Shown here: piece after piece, positions 8,073 through 63,595 of the stretch | Position numbering within the stretch: position 1 is the first letter of the stretch | Layout of the letters: the number at the start of each line of letters is the position of its first letter | Source of the DNA: a virus | Length of the DNA: 64,000 nt | Virus record (IMG/VR): IMGVR_UViG_3300046782_000218 | Span: 1 to 64,000 of that record | Direction: 5' to 3' (one strand) | Position numbers and translations under genes: made by a program | The notes under the pieces: model-generated | Seen by the model: the letters and a program-made list of their open reading frames with translations, nothing else | Databases searched by the model: none | What the model was told of the DNA's origin: nothing

Positions 8073-9431
8073 TCATTGGTTAGTGACACCCAGCATTCGA
8101 GACAGCCGGTCGAACACGTGGTCGGTGTTGCCAACGGTCATCCGACATACTTCGTGAAGCTCGACCCAGTTCGGGTTGAACTTGGTGTCGTCTAGGTCTC
8201 CAGTCTTGACGCGGTGACGAGCTTCTCGGGCGACTTCGGCGGCCAGCCTGCTGCCCGCGTCGCAGTTGTCCACAGCTGCCTTGACCACGTGCCAGGCGTC
8301 CATGGGGTCGAGACCTTTCTCAACTAGCCAGGTCCTGGCCGTTGCACTCATGACCTCTGGCTCGTGGTCATACGCGTTGGCCGACATGCGGTCGGCGCGC
8401 ACTTCAAGAGTGCCGATCAGGCCGGTGGCCTTGTTGACCATGGTGTCGAGCAGGATCAACGCGGTAGGCAGCGCGATGCGCTCTACGCTGCTATGACTGA
8501 TGTCGCGTTCGTGATGCAACGCGATGTCTTCCAGCGTGGGGCCGACCTGAGCACGCACCAACCGGGCCAAGCCGGACAGATTCTCGCTAACGATCGGGTT
8601 GCGCTTGTGCGGCATGGCCGATGATCCTTGACGACGATCGGCCCCACCTTCGACCAGTTCGCCGACCTCAGTTCGCATTGACAGACGGACCTCCATGGCC
8701 AGCGACTCGATGACCGCTGCAGCCTGCGCGCAGGCGTACACCAAGTGCGCGATGGAATCGCGGAACACTACCTGCGTGGCCGTTATCGGAGCACTGACCG
8801 AAGGTCCGAGCAACAAATGCGCGAACTTGGCCTCGTCATCGTGGCTGATCCGCTTGTAGTCGCCAACCGGGCCGGACAGTTTGGGGGTAACGGCTTCGGC
8901 ACCGGCTCGTCGAAGTAGGCTGTGAGCCCGCACCATGGCAAACGTGACGTCGGCGACCTTGTACCCCCAGGTGGTAACCTCGGCAGCTTGTCCGTGCGTC
9001 CGGCCGATGCGAAGCGTGTTGCGGTGTTCGAGGGCGTGACCCGCAAGTGCCCGTACCAGTTTGTCCATCCGGCGGTCGATGACGGTCCACGAGTTGGCTA
9101 TGGCCAACGACATAGCCGAATCGACCAGGTCCGAGCTGGTCATGTTCCGGTGAACCCACCCATGAGCCACGAGGTGCATGTTACGTCGCCACGCGGCCAG
9201 GAACGCCATCACGTCGTGACCCGTCGTGGCCTCTTCCTCGGCTACGGCGTCCGGGGTGGGCACCTGAGCCCGTGCCATGGCTTCCGTGGCTTCGGAGGAG
9301 GCTCCCTGGGCCTTCGCGGCGGCAATCTCCACCCTAGCCCAGTCGCGATACTTGGCCTGTTCCGACCAGATGGCCGCCATCTCGCGGCCAAGATACCGCT
9401 TGGGCACCGGAATTTGGTCGAGCGTGTTCAT
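8073..9431 (-). CDS. purB: Adenylosuccinate lyase (PurB-like)
   Basis: A full-length 452-residue member of the fumarase/aspartase superfamily. The signature GSSAMPHKRNP is at residues 269-279 (flexible loop with the catalytic Ser). The general-base region RTHGQ (His146) and an N-terminal TGHDV are also present. The family cleaves adenylosuccinate to AMP plus fumarate. In the Z-genome pathway the same enzyme class removes fumarate from N6-succino-2-amino-dAMP to give dZMP. Position in one cluster with purZ and a MazZ-like gene makes this second role likely. The ATG overlaps the stop of the 51-aa gene upstream (ATGA), so translation is coupled. Confidence 0.92.
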   Translation of the reverse strand: MNTLDQIPVPKRYLGREMAAIWSEQAKYRDWARVEIAAAKAQGASSEATEAMARAQVPTPDAVAEEEATTGHDVMAFLAAWRRNMHLVAHGWVHRNMTSSDLVDSAMSLAIANSWTVIDRRMDKLVRALAGHALEHRNTLRIGRTHGQAAEVTTWGYKVADVTFAMVRAHSLLRRAGAEAVTPKLSGPVGDYKRISHDDEAKFAHLLLGPSVSAPITATQVVFRDSIAHLVYACAQAAAVIESLAMEVRLSMRTEVGELVEGGADRRQGSSAMPHKRNPIVSENLSGLARLVRAQVGPTLEDIALHHERDISHSSVERIALPTALILLDTMVNKATGLIGTLEVRADRMSANAYDHEPEVMSATARTWLVEKGLDPMDAWHVVKAAVDNCDAGSRLAAEVAREARHRVKTGDLDDTKFNPNWVELHEVCRMTVGNTDHVFDRLSRMLGVTNQ

Positions 9432-9583
9432 TGCTGTCCTGTCTTGTCGTCAGCTTCGGTATTGCCGGTTTGCAGGTACTGCACCGTGTCCTCTCGGACC
9501 TGTTGGGACGGCTCGCTGTTGTCAAGCTGAGCACACGCCCACTGTGACGCCGCAAACTCAAGCGCGGTAGCTTCCTTGACCAC
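9428..9583 (-). CDS. Hypothetical protein, 51 aa
   Basis: GTG start with GGAGGG upstream; its stop overlaps the purB ATG. A helical N-terminal part is followed by a polar, Gln/Thr-rich tail. One Cys. It is part of a chain of overlapping small genes leading into purB. No family is recognised. Confidence 0.5.
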   Translation of the reverse strand: MVKEATALEFAASQWACAQLDNSEPSQQVREDTVQYLQTGNTEADDKTGQQ

Positions 9584-9584
9584 G

Positions 9585-9692
9585 TCAGCCCTCCTGTGTC
9601 AGATATTGCCGGATGTCTGCCAGGTCGGCAGCGGCCTGCTCAAGCTCCGCTGCCGTCTGGTCGGCCTGCTGGCTGAACTCGTCCTCGGTCAC
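9585..9692 (-). CDS. 35-aa helical microprotein
   Basis: GTGA overlap with the preceding gene. Nearly the whole product is one Ala/Glu/Gln helix (TAAELEQAAADLADIRQYL) with heptad-like spacing, so it could form a coiled coil with the 65-aa coiled-coil neighbour. No known family. Confidence 0.4.
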   Translation of the reverse strand: MTEDEFSQQADQTAAELEQAAADLADIRQYLTQEG

Positions 9693-9886
9693 GCGTTGCC
9701 CAGGTCGTACCACAGGGTGTGGGCGGCTTCCCTGGCGTCGTCGATGGCCTTACGGAGGTTGTCCCGTTGCGTGGTCATCTCCTCCAGGTCGCTGCGGAGC
9801 TGGTCCCGCTCGTTCTCCAGGTCGGAGACGTCCCCCCGCAGGTCCCCGATGATGGTGTTGGGGTCCTCTTCCGAGTAGCTGGCCAT
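9689..9886 (-). CDS. Coiled-coil protein, 65 aa
   Basis: The ATG overlaps the preceding stop (ATGA). After an acidic start the sequence is a clear coiled coil (SDLENERDQLRSDLEEMTTQ) of about 35 residues, ending AHTLWYDLGNA. No enzymatic motif. Probably a small adaptor, which is inference. Confidence 0.55.
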   Translation of the reverse strand: MASYSEEDPNTIIGDLRGDVSDLENERDQLRSDLEEMTTQRDNLRKAIDDAREAAHTLWYDLGNA

Positions 9887-10224
9887 CAGAAACTCACTCC
9901 CATCAGGAAGAACTTGCCGCTGACGCTCTGGTAGATCTTGACCGGGACGCCGTCCACGAACACCTGGTCCGCCGAGGAGGAGCCCACACGGTCCGTGATG
10001 TCGAAAGTGTCGCTGAGGTCCGACAGCCACAAGACCTCGGTGTAGTTCTCCCCGGAGTAGTCGCACTTGTTGACGGCCAGCTCGATGTCCCCGGCAGCTT
10101 CCTGGATCTTCTCCAGGGCCGCTATCAGGTCGCCGATCCTGGCCGCACGTTCCGACTTGTGCGGCCAGACGTTCGTCTCGGGGTCGATGGAATCCTTGTC
10201 GCGCCAGCGACGCTCTGTGGCCAC
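9886..10224 (-). CDS. Hypothetical protein, 112 aa
   Basis: GTG start with TAGGAGG upstream; first gene of the transcript that runs on to purB. A helical segment (ARIGDLIAALEKIQEAAGD) is followed by beta strands. It resembles small phage proteins annotated only as conserved hypothetical. No catalytic residues stand out. Confidence 0.6.
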   Translation of the reverse strand: MATERRWRDKDSIDPETNVWPHKSERAARIGDLIAALEKIQEAAGDIELAVNKCDYSGENYTEVLWLSDLSDTFDITDRVGSSSADQVFVDGVPVKIYQSVSGKFFLMGVSF

Positions 10225-10242
10225 TGCTGCCTCCTAAGCTTA

Positions 10243-10269
10243 GGGGACCGTCCGGGCTGGACGGTCCCC
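10243..10269 (-). other. Hairpin at the 5' end of the purB transcript
   Basis: 11-bp perfect stem (10243-10253 with 10259-10269). It lies downstream of the -10 at 10278-10283, so the RNA would begin at or in this hairpin. It may stabilise the 5' end or attenuate; it may also terminate readthrough from the dUTPase gene. Confidence 0.5.
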
Positions 10270-10277
10270 GTACTACC

Positions 10278-10307
10278 ATTCTACCATGGGGCGTGTAGCT
10301 GGTACAA
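10278..10307 (-). promoter_or_regulatory. Promoter of the purB transcript (TTGTAC-N18-TAGAAT)
   Basis: The -35 is at 10302-10307 and the -10 at 10278-10283, with TGG before the -10. Confidence 0.7.
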
Positions 10308-10312
10308 GCTTC

Positions 10313-11236
10313 CTAGCGTCCGGTGGACCCGAACCCGTTGGAGCCCCTGACCTTGTCCCGGGTGTTGCCCCACTTGGCGTTGAAGCCGAGGGCAGCGGTC
10401 GGGAGGAGGATGATCTGCGCGACCCGCTCACCAGCCGCCACCGTGACCGGCTCGGTGCTGAGGTTCTGGCAGCCCGCGAACAGGACCCCGGTGTAGCCGT
10501 TGTCGATGATCCCGGTGGACACGAGGAGCTTCCTCGCGCGGAGCGTGGAAGACCGGCCGGTGATCATGCCCCACAGGCCGTCCGGGAGGTCCACGGCCAC
10601 CCCCGTGGGGACGTCCACGAACTCACCCGGCTGGATGGTGGTGTCCTCCAGAGTGTACAGGTCGTAGCCCGCGTCGTCGTCGTGCCCCCGGGTCGGCAGC
10701 TTCGAGTTCACGTTGTACGCCTGGAAGATCAGGTCCCACGAGGGCTTGCTCTCGATGGAGGGAACCCGGCGGACGGACTTCTGCAGCTCGCCCATCAGTT
10801 CCGCTCGGCGCTGCAGCCAGTCGGCGACGTCGTACCGAGCGTTGGACGTCTCGGGGCTGACTACCAGTACGTTGGCATCACCGGCCCACCCGCTGATGGC
10901 CCAACTGTTGTTGGTCTCGTCGGTGGCGATCACCACGGGGGTGCAGTTGTTGCGGGCACGCTCGACCTCGGCCGGAACCCCGTAGGTCACCACGCCAGAG
11001 GGCAGGTACGCAAACAGCGCGTGGGCAGCGTCGAGCGCGAACTCGTTGATCTCGCTGATGAACCCGGCAGGGTCACCCTGACCCGGGATGAAGGCGCCGC
11101 CAGGCAGGTAGGTCGACCAGCCGCTCTGGCTCATGGCCTGCTGCAGCTCGCACAGGAACTGAACGTGCTTGTGGTTAGGCTCCGTACCGTAGTCGAGCGG
11201 CTGGGCCCAGTACAGGAGCTTGCTCGGGCTATTCAT
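10313..11236 (-). CDS. dut: Nucleoside 2-deoxyribosyltransferase-like domain fused to dUTPase
   Basis: Residues about 170-307 are a complete trimeric dUTPase: motif 1 DDDAGYDLY, motif 2 GRSS, motif 3 GIIDNGYTG, motif 4 AGERVAQII, motif 5 RGSNGFGSTGR. It would turn dUTP into dUMP. Residues 1-150 resemble nucleoside 2-deoxyribosyltransferases or deoxynucleotide N-glycosidases: an early YWAQP strand, a D-A-A-H-A-L strand before the catalytic-type Glu in GVPAEVERAR, and TPVVIAT. That domain cuts or exchanges the base of deoxynucleosides or dNMPs. Standard dUTPases are about 140-150 residues, so the fusion doubles the size. Lying between mazZ and purB, it may help reshape the dNTP pool for a Z genome; that is inference. 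Confidence 0.85.
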   Translation of the reverse strand: MNSPSKLLYWAQPLDYGTEPNHKHVQFLCELQQAMSQSGWSTYLPGGAFIPGQGDPAGFISEINEFALDAAHALFAYLPSGVVTYGVPAEVERARNNCTPVVIATDETNNSWAISGWAGDANVLVVSPETSNARYDVADWLQRRAELMGELQKSVRRVPSIESKPSWDLIFQAYNVNSKLPTRGHDDDAGYDLYTLEDTTIQPGEFVDVPTGVAVDLPDGLWGMITGRSSTLRARKLLVSTGIIDNGYTGVLFAGCQNLSTEPVTVAAGERVAQIILLPTAALGFNAKWGNTRDKVRGSNGFGSTGR

Positions 11237-11265
11237 CGGGTTTGACTCCTACCTAGTTGGATGGG

Positions 11266-11296
11266 CTGCCGGGCGGGGCGATTACCCGCCCGGCAG
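11266..11296 (-). terminator. Hairpin between genes
   Basis: 12-bp perfect stem (11266-11277 with 11285-11296) between the 11301-11513 gene and the dUTPase gene; terminator or attenuator. Confidence 0.55.
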
Positions 11297-11300
11297 GGTG

Positions 11301-11513
11301 TCACGGAGTGTGCAGCTCGGTGTAGACAGTGAACTCAGAGCCCTCGTCGCCGCTGTCCTTCCAATCGGACTCGTCGACGTCCAGGGCCTTGCCTCGGGTG
11401 ATGAACAGCTCCCCGGGGTACCGCTCGATGGCTTTGCCCACCGCCAGCGCCTCGGCCGATGTCATACCCTGCTCGACCAAGAACGCCAGGAACTTCATCT
11501 CGCCCCTGGTCAC
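11301..11513 (-). CDS. Hypothetical protein, 70 aa
   Basis: I use the GTG at 11513, which overlaps the mazZ stop (GTGA); an ATG at 11498 is also possible. The product has a helical N-terminus (MKFLAFLVEQGMTSAEALAVG) and an acidic C-terminus. It looks like a small helical-bundle or UBA-like protein. Role unknown; co-transcribed with purZ and mazZ. Confidence 0.55.
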   Translation of the reverse strand: MTRGEMKFLAFLVEQGMTSAEALAVGKAIERYPGELFITRGKALDVDESDWKDSGDEGSEFTVYTELHTP

Positions 11514-12037
11514 GGCCACTGCCCGTACTGCCGGATGAATTGGGCCATGGCCGCGTAAATCATCAGGTCACGAAGCGTGTCAACACTGGGCGCGACTCCC
11601 CGGATCATGGCGTCGGCCACGCGCTGCATCTTTCCGTATGCATAGACGAAGCAGCCGAGTTCGAGCGCTTCGGCCGGTTCGACCTCGCGCCCCTGGCCTC
11701 GGGCGTACAACCTGCCCATGGCCGCCAGCGAATTGGAGCCGTACTCCCTGGCCTTGGCCGCGATGGTGGGAGCCTCGGTGGCTACCAGCTTGGTCCACCA
11801 CTCGTCGAACTCCACGGGGCTGATGCCCAGTTCCCGCCGTAGTTCCGCCTCGGTCAGGGCTTCCGGCACTCCCACCCTGAGAGGGTTAACCATCGTTCTG
11901 TCCAGCATCTCTTGGAGCTTGGCCCGGTTGTCCTCCGCCGGACGGGGGCCGGGACCTCCGCAGGACGGGCAGTTGGGGACTCCGAACACCGGCTCGGTCG
12001 GGTGTCTCGGGTCCGTGCATTTGATGCGTTCGGTCAT
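11510..12037 (-). CDS. mazZ: MazG-like nucleotide pyrophosphohydrolase, MazZ candidate
   Basis: 175 residues. The N-terminus carries a CPSC segment after an earlier Cys; the C-terminal 100 residues match a phage MazG/HisE-type helical family: AAKAREYGSNSLAAMG, then ALELGCFVYAYGKMQRVADAM, then SVDTLRDLMIYAAMA. The acidic residues in the last two helices would bind Mg2+. In Z-genome phages MazZ splits dGTP (or GTP) to dGMP, the substrate of PurZ. The gene is directly downstream of purZ with a 12-bp gap and shares its promoter. The assignment rests on these motifs and on context. Confidence 0.75.
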   Translation of the reverse strand: MTERIKCTDPRHPTEPVFGVPNCPSCGGPGPRPAEDNRAKLQEMLDRTMVNPLRVGVPEALTEAELRRELGISPVEFDEWWTKLVATEAPTIAAKAREYGSNSLAAMGRLYARGQGREVEPAEALELGCFVYAYGKMQRVADAMIRGVAPSVDTLRDLMIYAAMAQFIRQYGQWP

Positions 12038-12049
12038 GTTGCCATGCTC

Positions 12050-13153
12050 CTATCGGAGGAAGATGCCAGTGGCCGGACCGGTGCCCACGAAGTTGACGTG
12101 GGTGCCGACGTTGGCCTGAGTGATGCCGACGAGGGACGCCAGCTGACGCGCCGTGTCGTTGTCTACCCGACTGGCGTCGGAAACGCCTGCCAGCTTCGGA
12201 ATCAGCGTGTCGACCATGGTGAGAGCCAGCTTGACGCCGATGCCGCCGTTGTCCTCGACGGCGTTGCACACCATCTCGTTGTCCCACTCGCCGACGCGGC
12301 GAACCTTGTTGGTGACCGTGGTGCGCTCCTCCGGCAGGCCCAGCTCTTCCCAGGTGGTCTCACCCTTGAGGGGACCGGAATTACCGGCCACGCGGATCGG
12401 CCGGACACGAGCCGCCAGCCACACCTGGAGCTGGTCGACCGAGTCGTGCCAGGGGCTGAGTCCCGCCATGGCCAGGAAGTCGATGGCCCGGCAGTCGGAC
12501 GAGGTGCACTGCGGGTACATCCCGGCGTGCGTTCCGAGTCCGTAACCCTGCGTCCCCTCGATCAGGACGGAGTAACCCTGTCGGAGCTGGCCGTACATCC
12601 ACGGGGCGGAGTCGAAGTCGCCGCCGAACAGCTCGGCCTTGCGCCACACCCGGTCGGCACGAGCGGCGCCGATGCCCTTCGCCGTCGAGCCCAGTCGCTT
12701 GACCAGGTCGGATTGCTGCTCGTCGAAGATGTGGTGGGGCTTGAGCAGTGTCGCCGATCGGTCCACGGACAGCCGACTCGACACGTCGTATCCCGCGCGG
12801 TCGAGGGCGTCCTTCTCGGCGTCGAGCACGGCCAGGTCGACCTCGGATCCGGCCGCGATCACCAGATGCGCGTTACGGTTGCTGACCGCTGCGACCGGCA
12901 CGGACCGCAGCTTCCACAGGTGCGCCGTACCGTCGGGGATGGCGACGCCGTCCAGGTTGGTCATGACCACGTGATTGGTCTCGTCCGGCTTGCACCCCGG
13001 AGGGCACTTGCCCACTACGGTGTGACCCGCGTTCGGTCCGGCCACGCGGACGGCCACCAGGTGGGCCTCCCGCTGCGACAGCTGGTCAGCAACAGAACCC
13101 TTTCCCTCGCTTCCCAGTTGACCGCCAGCCACTACGATGAGCTTTCCGCTCAT
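12050..13153 (-). CDS. purZ: PurZ, N6-succino-2-amino-2'-deoxyadenylate synthase
   Basis: 367 residues, shorter than bacterial PurA (about 430). The P-loop region reads GGQLGSEGKG (residues 10-19). PurA enzymes have Asp in GDEGKG; here it is Ser15, the known hallmark of phage PurZ, which must hold guanine rather than hypoxanthine. The conserved His is in GPNAGHT (39-45), followed by STAKGIG, an EGTQG loop and RPIRVAGNSG. PurZ joins aspartate to dGMP using ATP, dATP or GTP as energy source. It heads the transcript from the promoter at 13188-13217, followed by mazZ. Confidence 0.93.
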   Translation of the reverse strand: MSGKLIVVAGGQLGSEGKGSVADQLSQREAHLVAVRVAGPNAGHTVVGKCPPGCKPDETNHVVMTNLDGVAIPDGTAHLWKLRSVPVAAVSNRNAHLVIAAGSEVDLAVLDAEKDALDRAGYDVSSRLSVDRSATLLKPHHIFDEQQSDLVKRLGSTAKGIGAARADRVWRKAELFGGDFDSAPWMYGQLRQGYSVLIEGTQGYGLGTHAGMYPQCTSSDCRAIDFLAMAGLSPWHDSVDQLQVWLAARVRPIRVAGNSGPLKGETTWEELGLPEERTTVTNKVRRVGEWDNEMVCNAVEDNGGIGVKLALTMVDTLIPKLAGVSDASRVDNDTARQLASLVGITQANVGTHVNFVGTGPATGIFLR

Positions 13154-13187
13154 TCTGTACCGCCTCTCTGTGTTCTGGTACTACACT

Positions 13188-13217
13188 ATTGTACCATGCC
13201 CCGCACACCCGGCACAA
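13188..13217 (-). promoter_or_regulatory. Promoter of the purZ-mazZ-dut transcript (TTGTGC-N18-TACAAT)
   Basis: The -35 is at 13212-13217 and the -10 at 13188-13193, with extended TGG. The leader before the purZ ATG is about 30 nt. Confidence 0.75.
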
Positions 13218-13226
13218 GCCGGGCTG

Positions 13227-13712
13227 TCATTTGGCGTTACCCTGACGCACCTGCTTAACCCAGAAATATCCAAGGCACTCGCTGTCCTTTGAGTGACCTC
13301 CGTGGCCGTAGCTCTTCCAAGCCCGGAGCGGCATCTGCGGCGGCATGAAGGCCATCGTCTTGTACAGCTTCTTGTGGTGACCAGCAAGATACCGCCGCAT
13401 TGGCACTGCGGTACGGCGACAGATGTGCTTCATGGCACCGATGAGTTCCGAAGTCTGGAACTCCGACCCGATCTGCTGCCCCATCAGTTCGCCGTAAAGC
13501 TGAAATTTCTCGTACACTACCAGATCGATCTTGCCAGCGTCGGTAACCTCGATCAACATGTCGACCATACGGTCCGGCGTGGTCTCCCATGACCGCAGAC
13601 ACTGGTCCCCAGACCAGGTGGTTACTCCCACGTGAATGTCCCCAGGGTCAATGGACGTCCAGCGGTCCGGCAGCAGGTTGGGCAGCGGGAACTCGAGCGG
13701 GTCGTTTATCAC
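13227..13712 (-). CDS. RuvC-like Holliday junction resolvase
   Basis: GTG at 13712 overlaps the preceding stop, with a GGGTGG ribosome site. The RNase H-like core is visible: SIDPGDIHVGVTTW (first Asp, strand 1), DLVVYEKFQLYG (Glu after strand 4), QTSELIGAMKHICRR (helix), and HSKDSECLGYFWV (final His/Asp pair). These match the phage RuvC-like family of about 160 residues. It would resolve branched DNA before packaging. It is the last gene of the polymerase operon and sits next to purZ. Confidence 0.85.
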   Translation of the reverse strand: MINDPLEFPLPNLLPDRWTSIDPGDIHVGVTTWSGDQCLRSWETTPDRMVDMLIEVTDAGKIDLVVYEKFQLYGELMGQQIGSEFQTSELIGAMKHICRRTAVPMRRYLAGHHKKLYKTMAFMPPQMPLRAWKSYGHGGHSKDSECLGYFWVKQVRQGNAK

Positions 13713-13963
13713 TGTATCCACCCAAACACGAAGATTACGGTGCCGTCATCTTTTCGGGACGGCATCCAACCAGTTGACTCGTCCGCTTTGACTCGGTACA
13801 CCGCTTGTTTAATCTGGCTAGGGGGCTCTCCCGGTTTGGGGGCTAGTAGGCTCATCTCTGGGAACACCGGGCAGCAGTATTGAGACGATGGGTGGATTAC
13901 CCCCGGGTACTCGACCACGGTGCCGTCGAATGGGCCTCCTACCAACTCCGCACGGTCGTTCAT
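13709..13963 (-). CDS. GGPxDG-motif small protein, 84 aa
   Basis: The ATG at 13963 overlaps the preceding stop. The N-terminus AELVGGPFDGTVVEYPG matches the next gene's AEFIGGPMDGDRYELPG, so the two are tandem paralogues. Small proteins with this opening are frequent in actinobacteria and their phages; their role is unknown. The C-terminus is a mixed beta stretch rich in aromatic residues. Confidence 0.65.
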   Translation of the reverse strand: MNDRAELVGGPFDGTVVEYPGVIHPSSQYCCPVFPEMSLLAPKPGEPPSQIKQAVYRVKADESTGWMPSRKDDGTVIFVFGWIQ

Positions 13964-14262
13964 CACCACGCCTGCTCTGACGGGATGTGGATGTAACGGA
14001 GAGCGTTGCCGTCCGGGGTAAGTCGGATGCTGGCCTGGCCAACCTCTCCCGGGACCATGTCAGGCCGGTAGAGGGCTATCTTGAGATCCGACAGGTTTAG
14101 TTCCGCGTTGAACGGGGCGCTAAGGCCCTGGTCCGGAACTGCAATCGCCCCGTCGTGCATAAGGGCCCATCCTGGCAGTTCGTACCGGTCGCCGTCCATC
14201 GGCCCACCGATGAACTCGGCCATCTTGCCCGCCAGGTGAAAACCCCAGTTGATGTTGGTCAC
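13963..14262 (-). CDS. GGPxDG-motif protein, 99 aa
   Basis: GTG at 14262 overlaps the preceding stop and has GGAGGAA upstream. It shares the GGPMDG opening with its downstream neighbour, then diverges, ending in alternating strands (ASIRLTPDGNALRYIHIPS). Probably a small beta protein produced by gene duplication. Function unknown. Confidence 0.6.
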   Translation of the reverse strand: MTNINWGFHLAGKMAEFIGGPMDGDRYELPGWALMHDGAIAVPDQGLSAPFNAELNLSDLKIALYRPDMVPGEVGQASIRLTPDGNALRYIHIPSEQAW

Positions 14263-14495
14263 GGAAGGTTCCTCCAATCCAGGTCCAGGCAGTACGCGGC
14301 CTCGACGGCCTTGCCCCAGTGCTCGGCGTCCGGGTGCTGGTAGTCGTAGCAGTTCAGGCACGGGCAACTGAAACCCGCACGGACGACGCGCCGCAGCTGT
14401 CCGAACGTATCGAAGTTGCTGGCCGCCACCGCGTCCGCCATCTGCTTTTGGAGGTCCTCCGTGGTGATCTCGATGATCTCGATCTCGTCGCTCAT
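14259..14495 (-). CDS. Hypothetical Cys-containing protein, 78 aa
   Basis: ATGA overlap with the preceding gene. An acidic N-terminal helix is followed by a CPCLNC cluster (about residues 44-49) and a further Cys near residue 69. One zinc site is possible. No known family. Confidence 0.6.
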   Translation of the reverse strand: MSDEIEIIEITTEDLQKQMADAVAASNFDTFGQLRRVVRAGFSCPCLNCYDYQHPDAEHWGKAVEAAYCLDLDWRNLP

Positions 14496-14779
14496 CAGTC
14501 GGTTCCTGTCAGGAAGGGGTTCATTTGGTCGCCCCTGCGGGGGTGGTCAGGCCGGTGGATCTTGTGACACTCGCATTCACAGTTGCAGCAGTGCGAACCG
14601 CGAGGGCAGTGCCGAGGGCAACCGGCGTGATTGCCCTCGGCACACTCGGAGATCAATCTCGCCACTGTCGCAGTCTCCACCGTCGGGTGCTGTGTCGGCA
14701 GCGGTTCCATACCCAGGTTACCGTGCCACACCGGTGACAATACCAGCGCAGACTCATCGCCTACGTCCCGGGCAGTCAC
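14495..14779 (-). CDS. Cys-rich protein, 94 aa (start uncertain)
   Basis: No start is ideal. I choose GTG 14779, which overlaps the previous gene by 26 bp; GTG 14731 and ATG 14710 remain possible. The C-terminal half is dense in Cys and His (CAEGNHAGCPRHCPRGSHCC), enough for two zinc sites. No family is recognised. Confidence 0.5.
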   Translation of the reverse strand: MTARDVGDESALVLSPVWHGNLGMEPLPTQHPTVETATVARLISECAEGNHAGCPRHCPRGSHCCNCECECHKIHRPDHPRRGDQMNPFLTGTD

Positions 14780-15080
14780 CCGCTCGGTGACCCTGCCGGA
14801 TGGTCTTGCACGCCTGCGGCGGGTGCTGGGTGCAGCTGTTGGCCACTCGGTTTCGAGCAACCAGACCGCACGGCTCCTGAGTGCACGGGCACTCGTCCTC
14901 CAGCTGGTGACTGTCCCAGCTCCGGCCGATGTGCATCACGTCGTCCGAAGTTAGCCCCGGACATGTAACGTCCGGCTCGTTCTCCTCGGGATACTCCGCG
15001 TACGGGTTCCATAGGTGCTTGTGGTGTACGTCCGGATTCGAGCACTTGACCATCAGTCTGCCTGCGCTGTTGTCAAACAT
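14754..15080 (-). CDS. Cys/His-rich protein, 108 aa
   Basis: The ATG overlaps the polymerase stop (ATGA). The sequence has scattered Cys and His pairs (CSNPDVHHKH, CPCTQEPCG, CTQHPPQACK) that resemble several small zinc knuckles. Immediately after the polymerase gene it could be a DNA-binding accessory, but that is only context. Confidence 0.55.
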   Translation of the reverse strand: MFDNSAGRLMVKCSNPDVHHKHLWNPYAEYPEENEPDVTCPGLTSDDVMHIGRSWDSHQLEDECPCTQEPCGLVARNRVANSCTQHPPQACKTIRQGHRAGDCPGRRR

Positions 15081-17227
15081 CAGTGCTTGTCCCTCCAGCG
15101 ATCCGGGGAAATCCCCCAGGTCATCGTGCGGCCTCTGACGTTGAAGTATTTCTGGAACTCACGCTCACCGATGGCTGACACTTGTTCAGCTTCCTTGCGC
15201 CCTGCCTCGTCGGCTGTGTGCCTAGTCACCAGGCTGTCGTGTATCTGCAGCAACAGAACGCCAGGCATCTCGCGTTCAACAGCCAGCATCCATTTAACCA
15301 TCCCCCTCGCCAAATTACCTTGAATCACCTGGTTTACCGCGCTGTTGGTCTTCTCGCTGGGGCTGTACCAGCGTCGCCAGCCATCCAGCATGGTCAGATA
15401 CCCACACCCGCCCTGCCAGCGGGTGACCTTCTGGGTTGCCTGGTTGGTCAGACGCCGGAACTCAGGGTATTCGGTGAAGAAACTCTCCATTGCGTCCTTG
15501 GTGGCCTGCATCGAAATCGGTACGCCGGATGCGGCCTCGATCTGTTCCATCAGTGCCTTGACGCCACCGCCGTACAGGATGCCGAACGTGCCTCGCTTGG
15601 CTGCGTTACGCAGGTCGTAGAATTGCGGGTGGTCGGGGTCGACGCCGAACAACGCTTTGGCGTTCATCGCGTGCAGATCGGCCCCGGAGTCGAGGGCGTC
15701 CCAGAGCTTGGTACTGCCCGCGATTACGGTAACCACACGCATTTCGCCGGTAGCGAGGTCGTGCTCGTACAGGTCGTACCCGGGCTCATCTCCGATGATG
15801 CTCCGGATAGGCTCCGTGTCTTCCGGGATGAGTCGTCCGTGCGGGATGGCCTGGGCCTGCCAGCGGCCCACCGCGAGCCTCCCAGATACCGTCCCGCCCT
15901 TTCCGTCGCTGGCCCGGTCGAAATCGCCCTTGGTCTGCTTGTATCGAGTCCGGATACGACCATCCTTGCCGGTGCGCTTGGCCCAACCGGTATACCACTT
16001 GGAGTCGGAATTCCGGTTCTTGGTCCAGGCCATGAACTCCTGAGCCCACGGTCGCCCTTCGCTGACCAGTTTTCGCAGCTCGGTCAGGTCCAATTGAGGC
16101 TGTCGGGTCTTCTCGGTCCGGCTGGTCGGCTCCAGCCCCATGCCGTTCTTCCCGCCACATTCCGGGCACGACTTCTCGCACACCGTGGGGAACGTCAGAT
16201 CTTCCGCCCACGGGTCACCGCCACCGGGTGCAGGAACCTGCACATCCGCAGACCGGCTGCACGTCGGGCCGTAGTAGAACCGTTTGGCCTGCGCGATCTT
16301 GGAGGGATCGAACGGCATCACAGCTGCGATCTTGCGGTTGCGGACGCGAAGCTTCGCACCCTCGGCCAGCGACCGATCTACCGCGTAGTAGACGCCTCGA
16401 CGCTCCATGCGGTAGAGCGTGGTCCGAAGCTCCATCTCGTCCTTGACCAGATCCCAGAACTTGGGCAGTACCTCGCCGTTGTCAGCGCACGCCAGCTGAT
16501 ATTCCTTGAGACGCGCGGTCAGCTGGGTGTCTTTGGCCGCGTACTTTGACATCGCTCCGGCCCAGACGAGCAGATCGTATCGCTTGGTCATCTGAACGCC
16601 GACCTTGGAAAGCTCGTCTTTCAGTTCCTCGGCCTCGGTGCCCTCGTCTTCACCCCACAGCCGCTTAGCTGTTTTCTTGAGGGCAGCCGGTTCGAGCGGG
16701 TCGATGAGCTGTTTCTGAATGACCAGGGTGCACCAGATGGCGCGACGCCGAGTAGCCGGGTTGACCGGCGGCTCCAACGTAGGTTCCATCATGTTGAGCC
16801 GCTGGGGTTTGTTCAATTCCCAGGTACCCGGCTCACTGTCAGGGTCCCACGCCCCCCAGCCGTCCCAGATTTCGGGGTTGCTCCCTGCACCCGCGCGCAG
16901 ACCGGCTGCGAACATCGGCATATCGTGGATCGAGTTGTGCATGGTCAGGTTGTCGCGTCGGTCGAGCCATGCGATCAACTTCGCGTACTCGGTAGCGGGC
17001 AGGTTGGGTGCCGCGTCCGCCATGGTGATATCGCGGCCGAGGACCTTCGACATAGCGGCCAGGATGCGGTCCTGCTCGGCCTGGTCGATGATGGCGAATT
17101 CGGCATGACCTGTCTCCGGGTCAACGGTCGGCTTGCCCGGCTTGCCGATGAGCGGCCCCTGATCGAACGGCCACGCGAAGTCGAGCAGTTCGTTGGTCTC
17201 GGGGTCGCGGAAGCTGAGCGACACCAC
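15080..17227 (-). CDS. polA: Family A DNA polymerase (DpoZ-like), main reading frame
   Basis: Residue numbers count from GTG 17227. Polymerase motif A is YEHDLATGEMR (Asp490), motif B is RNAAKRGTFGILYG (Arg540, Lys544, Phe548, Tyr552), motif C is QIHDS (His663-Asp664). The 3'-5' exonuclease keeps ExoII (MHNSIHDM, Asp102) and ExoIII (YAAKDTQLT, Asp233). A CPECGG segment sits near residue 355. The frame is open upstream of GTG 17227 to about 17323, and the residues there (LFRDGEPFKSG, EARIS) look coding, but no normal start exists. ExoI lies in another frame (see 17302-17391). With purZ nearby, it is the probable Z-genome replicase. Confidence 0.9.
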   Translation of the reverse strand: MVSLSFRDPETNELLDFAWPFDQGPLIGKPGKPTVDPETGHAEFAIIDQAEQDRILAAMSKVLGRDITMADAAPNLPATEYAKLIAWLDRRDNLTMHNSIHDMPMFAAGLRAGAGSNPEIWDGWGAWDPDSEPGTWELNKPQRLNMMEPTLEPPVNPATRRRAIWCTLVIQKQLIDPLEPAALKKTAKRLWGEDEGTEAEELKDELSKVGVQMTKRYDLLVWAGAMSKYAAKDTQLTARLKEYQLACADNGEVLPKFWDLVKDEMELRTTLYRMERRGVYYAVDRSLAEGAKLRVRNRKIAAVMPFDPSKIAQAKRFYYGPTCSRSADVQVPAPGGGDPWAEDLTFPTVCEKSCPECGGKNGMGLEPTSRTEKTRQPQLDLTELRKLVSEGRPWAQEFMAWTKNRNSDSKWYTGWAKRTGKDGRIRTRYKQTKGDFDRASDGKGGTVSGRLAVGRWQAQAIPHGRLIPEDTEPIRSIIGDEPGYDLYEHDLATGEMRVVTVIAGSTKLWDALDSGADLHAMNAKALFGVDPDHPQFYDLRNAAKRGTFGILYGGGVKALMEQIEAASGVPISMQATKDAMESFFTEYPEFRRLTNQATQKVTRWQGGCGYLTMLDGWRRWYSPSEKTNSAVNQVIQGNLARGMVKWMLAVEREMPGVLLLQIHDSLVTRHTADEAGRKEAEQVSAIGEREFQKYFNVRGRTMTWGISPDRWRDKH

Positions 17228-17301
17228 CGAAATTCGGGCCTCAGGCTGCGGCGGATTGTTTCCCGATTTGAACGGCTCACCGTCTCGAAAAAGGCCGGAC
17301 G

Positions 17302-17391
17302 CTAAGAGCCCTCCGTGTCGACGCTAACGTCCCACCCCGAGGGGAGTTCCGGCAGCTCGACGTCACCTACGCGGGTGAATTGGAGAGTCAT
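17302..17391 (-). CDS. Out-of-frame N-terminus of the DNA polymerase (ExoI motif)
   Basis: ATG 17391 has an AGGTGAT ribosome site. It encodes 29 residues ending WDVSVDTEGS and then TAG at 17302-17304. VDTEGS is what the ExoI motif (D-x-E) of this polymerase should look like. A -1 shift just before the TAG would continue into LASGLFRDGE, the open frame leading to the main polymerase ORF. Either a programmed frameshift, a real mutation that removes proofreading, or a sequence error would explain it. Confidence 0.6.
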   Translation of the reverse strand: MTLQFTRVGDVELPELPSGWDVSVDTEGS

Positions 17392-17920
17392 TGGCATCAC
17401 CTACTTTCGTGTGAGGGCACGCGCCGTAGGCGTGCTTAGCGAAGTTGCAGTTGTGGCACAGAGTTTGGAACCCCTCAGGGTACCCGTTCTTGTTTAGCCA
17501 CCGGTAGGTTACCAGAGATCCGCCGCTAGAAGCTTTACCCCTGATCTCCTCCCGGTGTACGTTACCATCATTGTTTACATGGTCTATGCAGAGAAATTCC
17601 TCATGGCTTTCTCCGCAACAAGCGCACAATAGCCCGTATGCGTCCAACGCTGCCTTGCGGTACCGATAATGACGGTATTTGGCACCTCGGCGCATGTTAG
17701 CTTTTATGGACTCATGCTGCTCGGTGGTCATCTGTGACCTGCGCCACGTGGCTACGTTTTCTCGGTTGCAAACACGGCACACCCAAACCTTGCCGTTGTG
17801 GTACGCGTTCTCCTCGGTGCGAGGGTGTCCTTTCTGGCACTCTTGGTCCGGCGTTACCCCGCAGTAACACGATTTAGCCCGCTGGCCCCGCCAGACGTGC
17901 TCGTGTTGTTCTGTGGTCAT
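17363..17920 (-). CDS. HNH endonuclease (free-standing, homing type)
   Basis: 185 residues. Two Cys pairs near the N-terminus (CYCG, CRVCN) and CACCG are followed by CIDHVNNDGN (His-Asn core), then YPEGFQTLCHNCNFAKH, the C-terminal zinc half of a recombination endonuclease VII-like HNH fold. Such genes are mobile and often sit next to replication genes. This one overlaps the first 29 bases of the polymerase coding start. The -10 of its promoter ends 7 bases before the ATG, so the mRNA is nearly leaderless. Confidence 0.85.
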   Translation of the reverse strand: MTTEQHEHVWRGQRAKSCYCGVTPDQECQKGHPRTEENAYHNGKVWVCRVCNRENVATWRRSQMTTEQHESIKANMRRGAKYRHYRYRKAALDAYGLLCACCGESHEEFLCIDHVNNDGNVHREEIRGKASSGGSLVTYRWLNKNGYPEGFQTLCHNCNFAKHAYGACPHTKVGDANDSPIHPRR

Positions 17921-17927
17921 ACCCCCT

Positions 17928-17956
17928 ATTTTATCATACGGGGGACTCTGTGTCAA
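17928..17956 (-). promoter_or_regulatory. Promoter of the HNH-polymerase operon (TTGACA-N17-TAAAAT)
   Basis: A consensus -35 (17951-17956) and -10 (17928-17933) with extended TGA. One of the strongest-looking promoters here; it should drive HNH, polymerase and the genes down to RuvC. Confidence 0.75.
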
Positions 17957-29368: not shown

Positions 29369-29372
29369 GTGT

Positions 29373-29451
29373 GGACTCGACAGGATTCGAACCTGCAACC
29401 GCCGAGGTGGTGCCTCGGTCAACCAGCGTCTACCAATTCCGCCACGAGTCC
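29373..29451 (-). tRNA. Degenerate tRNA-Leu-like element D
   Basis: 79 nt. Perfect 7-bp acceptor (GGACTCG with CGAGTCC), Leu-type D region (GGCGGAATTGGTAGACGC) and T-arm GCAGG-TTCGAAT-CCTGT. The only 5+7+5 arm is CCGAG-GCACCAC-CTCGG, whose loop lacks U33, and seven extra bases precede it. No valid Leu anticodon is seen. Confidence 0.45.
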
Positions 29452-30982: not shown

Positions 30983-32929
30983 TCAGTGTCGGGTGTGATC
31001 GATCTCCCAACCGGTGTCGAGCAGGAACCGCTCTTCCCGGTCGTCCCCCAGCTTACGGCCGGTGAGGCACGCCTCGCGCATCGAGCACATGCGCTTGCAG
31101 CGCTCGGCGTCCGGGTGTCGGGTGTGCTTGTTCGCCTTGGAATGCAGGTACCTGGCCGTTTCCAAGGTCTCCTGCAACAGCGTGCGGACCTCCTGGTCTG
31201 TGCGGTTGGTGGGGACTCGGGCGAACCTACCATCGATCGGCTGCGGCTTAGGCTGGGCACCCGGCTTGAGGCCAGCGGCCTTGTCGGCGTGCCATTGAGC
31301 CACGACGTCCGGATGATCACCCTTGTTCCGGGTGGTCCGCACGCCGTTGTACAGGCAGGCAAAGATGTTCTTGTCGAGCAGATTCAAGGCACCTTTGTAT
31401 ACGCCGAACTGATCGTGGAAGTCGAGATCCTGGGTGTCCCCCGGCAAGTTGGCTGCACTGTTGTGGGTCATCACGCCGTTAACCGCAAACAGGCTATCAG
31501 CGGCTCGGACTTCCAAGTCGGTACACGCTCTCTCGCCTATCGGTTCAACACTTACTACCGACAGCCGTTCTTGCAGAGAAGCCTTAGACCGCTTCCACCG
31601 ACTTAGTTTTTCCTCATGATGGTACGGTGCGGGGAAGTCACTCGGAAACCGCATTTTGACTTCCCAGTTGGGGGCACCTACGCCGCCTTGATACTTTGGT
31701 CCCTTGTTACACCAAACGGTTGCCACCCCGCCCAGTGATTCAACCAGCTTTATTACATCATTGGCCAGCTGCTTGGAACCTGTCTGGTACAACGGGACAC
31801 CCTTACGGTGAGATCCGTCCGTATCCATCAGTCCACGAAGCAGCTCCAAGCGCTGATTAAATGACCCCAGCAGGTATCCGGACGGGATGAACTTATGGGG
31901 GCCATCCGACCCGTGCAGTCCCAGAGACTTTACCACGTCCCCTAGGGTTCCTGCCAGTCGGTACGTGTCCGCTTTGGTCGGGTGTTTGTACACGCCGGAC
32001 ACGTAGCTGCCCTCGGGCAAAGCAGCTTTAACCCGAGCCACGGTCCCCGGGTGATTCTTAGTGAATGTTACGGGCAGAGAAGTGAACCCGCCGTCCCCCA
32101 ACAGCGCTCCTAGCAAGTAGGGGTCTAGTTGGAAAGTGCGTTCCGGCCGGTCGGACCTCGGAGACTGCAACATCCGGTAGGTCACTCCGGAAGCAACGTT
32201 AGCAGCCATTTCGGCTGTAGTGATCTCTTCACGCACATACCGGCCGGTATGCACTGACCTGTCTACGGGCCACACGTGGTCTCCGGAACACACTACTTCA
32301 ATCCCGTTTCGCAGAGTGACCAGGTAACAGTCAAGCTGAATGCTGCGGCTAGCTGCGACAACCTCAGTCCAGGTCCCATCGGATGACAGCACCAGGTCTC
32401 CAGCCGTTACGTCGCCGATGCGTGTCTTACCGGAGAACGTCTGTATGGGCGTATCGTCACTCAGGCACTTGTGATCCCACACCCAGCGGCGACCGGTCAT
32501 CCGATGTTCGGCCACCAGGTCAACGCCGCCCTTGAGGGTGAATCCGGACAGCCGACCGCTGGCCGTCCTGAGCGGTACTTCGAACCGGTATTCGACCGCG
32601 AGGATCTTCCATTCCTCATCGACGCCGTAATGTTCGACGTACCCTTCGAACATCCACCTTACCAGATCGATGGTGTCAGGGTCCTTGCCGGTGGCGGCCA
32701 GATCGGCGAACACCTGGTCAACCGACGACATGGCCACGGCCTTGTTGCCCGGAACCCGTAGCAATGATCGGTACCAGGTCTCCAACACGAGGTGGAACAT
32801 GGACCCCTTGGCGAGAGGGCCGGTTCCGTCGTTCTCCTTGGTCCACCTTTGGGCGTATGTCCTCCAGTGATAGTGGGGGCACATCCTACCGCGTTGGATC
32901 TCGGAGTAGCTAACCGTTACTGTCGACAC
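30983..32929 (-). CDS. RecB/Cas4-like exonuclease containing an intein
   Basis: 648-residue precursor. The N-extein (1-154) has QRGRMCPHYHW (first Cys), HLVLE, then GGVDLVA (Asp136) and WDHK (Asp152, Lys154), the PD-(D/E)xK core. The C-extein ends with CKRMCSMREAC, the Cys cluster of iron-sulfur Cas4/AddB-type nucleases. A 336-residue intein sits directly after the catalytic Lys154. After splicing the nuclease would be 312 residues. It would resect DNA for the Sak4-like recombinase. GTG start with AAGGAC upstream. Confidence 0.85.
   Translation of the reverse strand: MSTVTVSYSEIQRGRMCPHYHWRTYAQRWTKENDGTGPLAKGSMFHLVLETWYRSLLRVPGNKAVAMSSVDQVFADLAATGKDPDTIDLVRWMFEGYVEHYGVDEEWKILAVEYRFEVPLRTASGRLSGFTLKGGVDLVAEHRMTGRRWVWDHKCLSDDTPIQTFSGKTRIGDVTAGDLVLSSDGTWTEVVAASRSIQLDCYLVTLRNGIEVVCSGDHVWPVDRSVHTGRYVREEITTAEMAANVASGVTYRMLQSPRSDRPERTFQLDPYLLGALLGDGGFTSLPVTFTKNHPGTVARVKAALPEGSYVSGVYKHPTKADTYRLAGTLGDVVKSLGLHGSDGPHKFIPSGYLLGSFNQRLELLRGLMDTDGSHRKGVPLYQTGSKQLANDVIKLVESLGGVATVWCNKGPKYQGGVGAPNWEVKMRFPSDFPAPYHHEEKLSRWKRSKASLQERLSVVSVEPIGERACTDLEVRAADSLFAVNGVMTHNSAANLPGDTQDLDFHDQFGVYKGALNLLDKNIFACLYNGVRTTRNKGDHPDVVAQWHADKAAGLKPGAQPKPQPIDGRFARVPTNRTDQEVRTLLQETLETARYLHSKANKHTRHPDAERCKRMCSMREACLTGRKLGDDREERFLLDTGWEIDHTRH
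31460..32467 (-). mobile_element. Intein with LAGLIDADG homing endonuclease
   Basis: 336 residues: Cys1 in CLSDDTP (precursor residue 155), a block-B-like GDHVW, two dodecapeptide motifs (LLGALLGDGG and LLRGLMDTDG), and the C-terminal VNGVMTHN before Ser+1. All splice residues (Cys1, His-Asn, Ser+1) are present, so it should splice. Both acidic catalytic positions of the homing endonuclease are also kept. Confidence 0.88.
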
Positions 32930-59226: not shown

Positions 59227-59457
59227 TCAGTCGTCTTCGTCGTCAGGTGGCGCAAGCTCGGTGTAGAGCAGCGTACGGGCCACCCATCGGTCATTTTCGA
59301 CCGGCAGTATGTAGCCAGCCCTGGTGTACGCTGCTCCGTGTTTGAACTTCACCTTTATGCCCGCGTCAGTGCATTTGTTCAACACGTCGGCAAGAGCAGT
59401 TAGCAGGGCAGCAGCGTCAGTCGCCGAGGATTCCCCGATAGACTCGCGGCCAGTCAC
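59227..59457 (-). CDS. Hypothetical protein, 76 aa
   Basis: GTG 59457 has GAGGAG seven bases upstream and overlaps the portal end by 41 bases. A helix (DAAALLTALADVLNKCTDAG) is followed by strands (IKVKFKHGAAYTRAGYILPV). No family is recognised. Confidence 0.6.
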   Translation of the reverse strand: MTGRESIGESSATDAAALLTALADVLNKCTDAGIKVKFKHGAAYTRAGYILPVENDRWVARTLLYTELAPPDDEDD

Positions 59458-63580: not shown

Positions 63581-63595
63581 GGTCACCTCCCTCGC

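What the first reader, a model, noticed from the sequence alone, without database searches (positions are those of the whole stretch)
8073..17391. Z-genome (2-aminoadenine) module
PurZ has Ser in place of the PurA catalytic Asp (GSEGKG), and a MazZ-like hydrolase, PurB and a family A polymerase lie in the same cluster. Known from PurZ phages: the Asp-to-Ser change allows dGMP as substrate. I infer that the phage DNA contains 2-aminoadenine instead of adenine.
Basis: partly seen in the sequence, partly recalled or inferred. Interest (0 to 1): 0.85.

Follow-up and report, generated by a model that had tools for sequence, protein, structure and literature searches.

The report
Phage gene set for 2-aminoadenine DNA
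This soil virus of bacteria carries a nearly complete set of genes for building its DNA with 2-aminoadenine instead of adenine; the set is of a kind already known from Streptomyces phages, but it includes one unnamed gene that sits right behind the key enzyme in every one of 80 related virus sequences examined.

Summary
The module is real and of a known kind. The window is 64 kb of an 89-kb viral contig related to Streptomyces phages Hiyaa and Galactica, with the same genes in the same order. PurZ (12050-13153) has the Ser (GSEGKG) and belongs to the PurZ0 subgroup (100/100 support). PurB and a family A polymerase are confirmed.

Three corrections. No DatZ, HD, DUF550 or DUF5664 gene was found in the record. 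(2) The 'MazZ-like' gene (11510-12037) matches neither MazZ nor any Pfam or PHROG family. It is an unnamed family directly downstream of purZ0 in 80 of 80 IMG/VR loci, perhaps distantly related to DUF6378; nucleotide hydrolase is likely but not shown. (3) The polymerase is broken by an 8-nt insertion at exonuclease motif I, possibly an assembly error, and keeps the helix-O Tyr where both studied DpoZ groups have Phe.

That the DNA contains 2-aminoadenine is well supported but not proven. Verdict: new member of a known kind.

The parts
12050..13153 (-). purZ (PurZ0 subgroup), N6-succino-2-amino-dAMP synthase; 367 aa; Ser15 in GSEGKG
   Evidence: Ser in 46/46 aligned PurZ; PurZ0 clade 100/100; 59% identity to Galactica gp65
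   Evidence: directly downstream of purZ in 80/80 IMG/VR PurZ0 loci
10313..11236 (-). dmtZ-dutZ fusion; N-terminal NDT-like domain (res ~1-165) plus dUTPase-fold domain (178-306)
   Evidence: (PF00692 8e-25): Y9, D15, P45, N64, E90, W112 match Ghobes DmtZ Y6, D12, P57, N77, E103, W124
8073..9431 (-). purB, adenylosuccinate lyase, 452 aa
   Evidence: 48-50% identity to the Streptomyces phage PurB-like proteins
15080..17323 (-). family A DNA polymerase, main open frame (exo II, exo III, polymerase motifs); GTG start at 17227
17302..17391 (-). 5' part of the polymerase gene with exo motif I (DTEGS), closed by TAG after 29 codons
17299..17310 (-). site of the 8-nt insertion that shifts the frame (the gap falls within GGCTCTTAGCGT; placement ambiguous by a few bases); TTAGCGTC also occurs 22 bases upstream, at about 17327-17320
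   Evidence: alignment with L114
17363..17956 (-). HNH endonuclease gene overlapping the start of the polymerase gene; probably not part of the pathway
   Evidence: phrog_2255 4e-7

Best explanation
A Hiyaavirus-like phage carries a PurZ0-type 2-aminoadenine module. Proposed route: (1) the DutZ domain, perhaps helped by the unnamed 11510-12037 protein, converts dATP and dGTP to dAMP and dGMP; (2) PurZ0 joins dGMP and aspartate, using a purine triphosphate, to make N6-succino-2-amino-dAMP; (3) the phage's own PurB splits off fumarate to give dZMP, so this step need not rely on the host; (4) DmtZ destroys dAMP and can transfer its sugar phosphate to free Z base, giving more dZMP; (5) host kinases make dZTP; (6) the phage family A polymerase places Z opposite T. 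Shown here: gene content, order, phylogenetic placement and catalytic residues. Known from characterised relatives: activities of PurZ, DutZ, DmtZ and Wayne-type DpoZ. Inferred: all activities in this phage, and that A is replaced wholly or nearly so.
For: PurZ0 placement and Ser; synteny with Hiyaa and Galactica; DmtZ residues 6/6; PurB motifs and lyase match; polymerase inside a PurZ0-phage PolA clade, 100/100, apart from 8 non-Z PolA and 2 VC8-type polymerases; no DatZ/HD/DUF550/DUF5664 in the 89-kb record, fitting the PurZ0 pattern reported in PMC12884076.
Against: No chemical evidence of Z in this or, in the sources read, in any Hiyaa-type phage. The polymerase reading frame is broken at exo motif I in this contig and lacks the helix-O Phe shared by both studied DpoZ groups. 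The contig is a linear metagenomic record and may be a fragment, so genes may be missing.
Confidence: 0.85

Rival explanations
1. The module is decaying or only partly effective in this phage: the polymerase frameshift is real, and the DNA carries mixed A and Z or only A.
For: 8-nt insertion with a stop in exo motif I; helix-O Tyr as in ordinary PolA.
Against: All other module frames are open with active-site residues kept; the relative L114 has an intact polymerase; a single indel in a metagenomic contig can be an assembly error, and the inserted octamer copies one 22 nt upstream. Exonuclease-deficient VC8 DpoZ mutants keep Z preference (PMC8599892).
Confidence: 0.1
2. The PurZ-like protein is an extra PurA that raises ordinary adenine nucleotide supply; PurB and the nucleotide hydrolases serve general pool control.
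For: PurA and PurB are consecutive enzymes of adenine synthesis; PF00709 match.
Against: Ser replaces the catalytic Asp in 46/46 sequences aligned, whereas Asp is 99% conserved in the PurA group (PMC12884076); a DmtZ with these residues would destroy, not save, dAMP.
Confidence: 0.03
3. For 11510-12037 only: not a hydrolase but a PurZ-binding helical protein, for example a regulator or channelling partner.
For: Strict adjacency to purZ0 (80/80) and no significant match to any known hydrolase in sequence or fold.
Against: Four acidic positions (E98, E126, D153, D157) plus K95, K136 and R139 conserved at 90% or more look like an active site; its place is taken by the dNTP hydrolase DUF5664 in Arthrobacter phage Wayne (PMC12884076); above-chance profile match to DUF6378 with the same motif register.
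Confidence: 0.3

Closest known systems
Streptomyces phages Galactica and Hiyaa (Hiyaavirus)
   Same: Same genes in the same order: primase/polymerase, helicase, family A polymerase, purZ, unnamed gene, dmtZ-dutZ ('deoxyuridine triphosphatase'), purB; PurZ 56-59%, polymerase 58% (Galactica), PurB 48-50% identical.
   Different: Unnamed gene is 175 aa here against 315-419 aa; polymerase frame broken; little nucleotide identity.
Arthrobacter phage Wayne and Gordonia phage Ghobes PurZ0 modules (PMC12884076)
   Same: PurZ0, DutZ and DmtZ; DmtZ-DutZ fused as in Wayne; Ghobes also has purB and the unnamed gene (gp51).
   Different: Wayne has DUF5664 in place of the unnamed gene, and no Arthrobacter phage was among the PurB matches; their polymerases have helix-O Phe, this one has Tyr.
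S-2L / phiVC8 / SH-Ab 15497 Z-clusters
   Same: PurZ with Ser in place of Asp.
   Different: Those have DatZ and MazZ, MazZ-2 or DUF550; this record has none of the families tested and its PurZ lies in the other subgroup.
DUF6378 (PF19905), e.g. Salmonella phage 9NA gp29
   Same: Same motif register (E/D-Y-G, K-x-x-R, D-T/S-x-x-D-x-x-x-Y) as the unnamed gene; hhalign score 26.5 against a maximum of 17.8 in 100 column shuffles; Foldseek probability 0.97 but E 0.06.
   Different: HHalign probability only 39%; no Pfam hit for the window protein; DUF6378 is itself uncharacterised.

Membership tests
PurZ0 subgroup of PurZ | Adenylosuccinate synthetase fold family | tested here: met
   PF00709 5e-30; best PDB match 7vf6, named in PMC12884076 as PurZ0 of phage Archimedes
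PurZ0 subgroup of PurZ | Ser in place of catalytic Asp13 | tested here: met
   GSEGKG; Ser in 46/46
PurZ0 subgroup of PurZ | Monophyly with Wayne/Ghobes-type sequences, apart from VC8/S-2L-type | tested here: met
   100/100 support
PurZ0 subgroup of PurZ | dGMP as substrate | not testable with these tools
   needs an enzyme assay
DmtZ | Catalytic triad Tyr, Asn, Glu and residues Asp12, Pro57, Trp124 of Ghobes DmtZ | tested here: met
   Y9, N64, E90, D15, P45, W112
DutZ | dUTPase fold fused to or near DmtZ in a PurZ0 phage | tested here: met
   PF00692 8e-25 at residues 178-306 of the same protein
DutZ | dATP and dGTP diphosphohydrolase activity | not testable with these tools
   needs an enzyme assay
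DpoZ (PurZ0 type, DpoZ-1) | Clade with polymerases of PurZ0 phages | tested here: met
   36 PurZ0-phage polymerases together, 100/100, against 8 non-Z and 2 VC8-type
DpoZ | Helix-O Tyr changed to Phe (only change shared by both DpoZ groups, PMC8599892) | tested here: not met
   FGILYGGG; Tyr also in Galactica, Hiyaa and most soil relatives
DpoZ | Intact 3'-5' exonuclease motif I | tested here: not met
   DTEGS then TAG after an 8-nt insertion; exo II and III kept; may be an assembly error
DpoZ | Preference for dZTP over dATP | not testable with these tools
   needs a polymerase assay
MazZ (MazZ-1 of S-2L) | Sequence or profile homology | tested here: not met
   HHalign probability 0.9% with S-2L MazZ; no Pfam match
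MazZ (MazZ-1 of S-2L) | MazG-HisE fold | tested here: inconclusive
   Confident four-helix model (pLDDT 93), but the best MazG-like PDB match, DR2231, has E 5 and probability 0.21
MazZ-2 | Sequence homology and four conserved acidic residues | tested here: inconclusive
   Four acidic positions at 90% or more; no MazZ-2 sequence set was compared
DUF5664 / DUF550 dNTP diphosphohydrolases | PF18909 or PF04447 match | tested here: not met
   No match at E <= 1 in the 89-kb record; HHalign with Wayne gp51 and the Bhz20 protein 0.1-0.2%
DatZ | YfbR-like / HD phosphohydrolase | tested here: not met
   No PF12917 or PF01966 match at E <= 1 in the 89-kb record
PurB adenylosuccinate lyase | Lyase_1 fold with flexible-loop Ser and general-acid His motifs | tested here: met
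   PF00206 6e-35, SSAMPHKRNP and GRTHGQ

The most novel reading that the evidence does not exclude
The 11510-12037 family is a near-universal partner of PurZ0 and a separate, not previously named dNTP diphosphohydrolase lineage, distantly related to DUF6378, that supplies dGMP to PurZ0 and/or removes dATP; it would be another convergent answer to the task done by MazZ, MazZ-2, DUF550, DutZ and DUF5664.
Probability: 0.4. Interest if true: 0.55.

Novelty: new member of a known kind. Interest (0 to 1): 0.42.

Why it matters
2-aminoadenine DNA breaks the standard A:T pairing and resists many restriction enzymes. This record adds a divergent phage to the PurZ0 branch and shows three points I did not find discussed in the papers available here: a phage-encoded PurB is common in that branch, one unnamed gene follows purZ0 in all 80 loci examined, and the helix-O Phe reported as the shared DpoZ feature is missing from many PurZ0-phage polymerases. 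The second and third can be tested with existing isolates such as Hiyaa, Galactica and Ghobes.

Tried and rejected
'MazZ-like' was tested by Pfam and PHROG, PDB sequence search, HHalign against MazZ, DUF5664 and DUF550-type proteins and Foldseek on two AlphaFold models: no significant named match, so the label was dropped. The PDB profile hits are designed helical repeats, taken as composition effects. The genome-contig search for the unnamed family: two alignments gave no usable pattern; a third found no relative, a weak negative because its patterns were narrow. A terminase or helicase reading of 30983-32929 was rejected: the matching part looks like an intein. Programmed frameshifting for the polymerase was considered; no canonical slippery site was seen at GGC TCT TAG and the relative is intact, so error or mutation is preferred. 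Early Z-genome papers in Science and the PurZ0 paper in Nature Microbiology are not in the held library and were not read.
Full report
Setting. The window is bases 1-64000 of an 89,118-base IMG/VR virus record classed as linear. The identified phage genes lie on the minus strand. The closest annotated isolates by PurZ are Streptomyces phages Galactica (59%) and Hiyaa (56%); nucleotide similarity to them is slight. The primase/polymerase, helicase, polymerase, purZ, unnamed gene, dUTPase and purB stand in the same order in those phages, so this is a new, divergent member of a known group.

PurZ. The protein at 12050-13153 reads GSEGKG where PurA has GDEGKG. It matches PF00709 (5e-30) and the PHROG for 2-aminooxy adenylosuccinate synthetase (6e-75); its best PDB match is 7vf6, which PMC12884076 names as PurZ0 of Gordonia phage Archimedes. 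In a tree of 46 PurZ proteins it falls inside the PurZ0 group (100/100), apart from VP5, S-2L and an Acinetobacter phage sequence; all 46 have Ser. PMC12884076 reports Ser in all 147 phage PurZ and Asp in 99% of the PurA group. The Ser marks PurZ as a whole and does not separate the two subgroups.

dUTPase-like protein. PMC12884076 showed that PurZ0 phages use DutZ (a dUTPase-fold enzyme taking dATP and dGTP to dAMP and dGMP) and DmtZ (hydrolyses dAMP and transfers its deoxyribose phosphate to Z base). The window protein 10313-11236 has both domains fused, as in Wayne, and keeps all six DmtZ residues that were mutated or highlighted there: Y9, D15, P45, N64, E90 and W112. No YfbR-like/DatZ, HD, DUF550 or DUF5664 match was found in the 89-kb record. 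This fusion is therefore the best candidate for removing dATP and providing dGMP.

The 'MazZ-like' gene. The protein at 11510-12037 follows purZ by 12 bases. No Pfam or PHROG family matches it or its relatives above noise, and profile comparison with S-2L MazZ, Wayne DUF5664 and a DUF5664-DUF550 protein gives nothing. In the annotated phage collection it is found in 31 records (18 Microbacterium, 6 Gordonia, 5 Streptomyces, 1 Micrococcus, 1 Curtobacterium); for Microbacterium, Gordonia, Streptomyces and Curtobacterium these counts equal the numbers of PurZ-bearing records. Of 80 IMG/VR loci selected by PurZ0 similarity, all 80 carry it just downstream of purZ, stop to stop 292-1262 bases, median 395. 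These 80 are the best of 294 candidates, so they are biased toward PurZ proteins like this one; in Arthrobacter phage Wayne the position is held by DUF5664 instead. Across 53 sequences K95, Y99, G100, G108, K136, R139, D153, D157 and Y161 are invariant, and E98 and E126 at least 90%.

Fold of that gene. AlphaFold gives a confident four-helix domain (pLDDT 93, pTM 0.81). Outside its own family the best viral structural neighbour is DUF6378 (9NA gp29, probability 0.97 but E 0.06). In the PDB the MazG-like DR2231 appears only at noise level. HHalign against a small DUF6378 alignment scores 26.5 with the Y-G, K-x-x-R and D-T-x-x-D-x-x-x-Y motifs in register, against at most 17.8 in 100 column-shuffled controls. 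A distant relation to DUF6378, and from there to nucleotide pyrophosphohydrolases, is a reasonable hypothesis. MazZ membership is not shown.

PurB. The lyase at 8073-9431 is full length with the expected motifs. Among annotated PurZ-bearing phages, PurB is found in the 5 Streptomyces and 6 Gordonia records; it is in 10 of 20 IMG/VR PurZ0 loci that have at least 9 kb on both sides. PMC12884076 assigns the step from dSMP to dZMP to host enzymes. A phage-encoded lyase is thus a frequent addition, already annotated in GenBank records; I found no discussion of it in the papers read.

Polymerase. The family A polymerase groups with 35 other PurZ0-phage polymerases at 100/100, apart from eight ordinary phage PolA (of phages not among the PurZ matches listed) and two VC8-type DpoZ. 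PMC8599892 names one change shared by both studied DpoZ groups, Tyr to Phe in helix O. The Wayne, Ghobes and Microbacterium types have Phe, but this phage, Galactica, Hiyaa and most soil relatives have Tyr, as do all eight ordinary polymerases sampled. The Phe is thus not universal in PurZ0 phages, and Z preference in this branch has not been shown in the sources read.

Frameshift. From the ATG at 17391 the frame runs into TAG at 17304-17302 just after exo motif I (DTEGS); the rest of the gene continues in another frame. The relative L114 (71% identity over aligned tree columns) is intact, and the difference is a net 8-base insertion; the octamer TTAGCGTC also occurs 22 bases upstream. Assembly error or a recent mutation cannot be told apart here.

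Conclusion. The phage very probably makes 2-aminoadenine DNA by the PurZ0 route. Shown: gene content, order, relationships, residues. Inferred: every activity in this phage and the extent of replacement. The module is known in kind. What is new in degree is the purZ0-linked unnamed gene, the frequent PurB and the Tyr-type polymerases.

Noticed in passing
window 30983-32929 (-): A PD-(D/E)XK (Cas4-like) exonuclease appears to be interrupted by an intein: weak Hint_2 match from residue 155 and a LAGLIDADG domain at 359-408; this explains misleading terminase and helicase hits.
   Followed up: partly
window 59417-63586 (-): A 1389-aa portal protein (PF04860 at 278-515) carries a NUDIX hydrolase domain at its C-terminus (1244-1367).
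   Followed up: no
window 17299-17391 (-): 8-nt insertion and frameshift at exo motif I of the polymerase; the octamer TTAGCGTC is repeated 22 bases apart.
   Followed up: partly
PurZ, window 12050-13153 (-), residues about 44-83; also Galactica, Hiyaa, L018, L019, L006, L114 and others: Soil-type PurZ0 proteins have an insert with CPxxC-like and His residues between GHT and LRxVP, absent from Wayne, Ghobes and S-2L types; possibly a metal site.
   Followed up: no
window 29371-29451 (-): Single tRNA-Leu (GAG) gene next to the recombination genes; Galactica and Hiyaa have a tRNA-Glu in the corresponding place.
   Followed up: no
window 17363-17956 (-): HNH endonuclease gene directly upstream of and overlapping the polymerase start, where Galactica and Hiyaa have a different, larger gene.
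   Followed up: no
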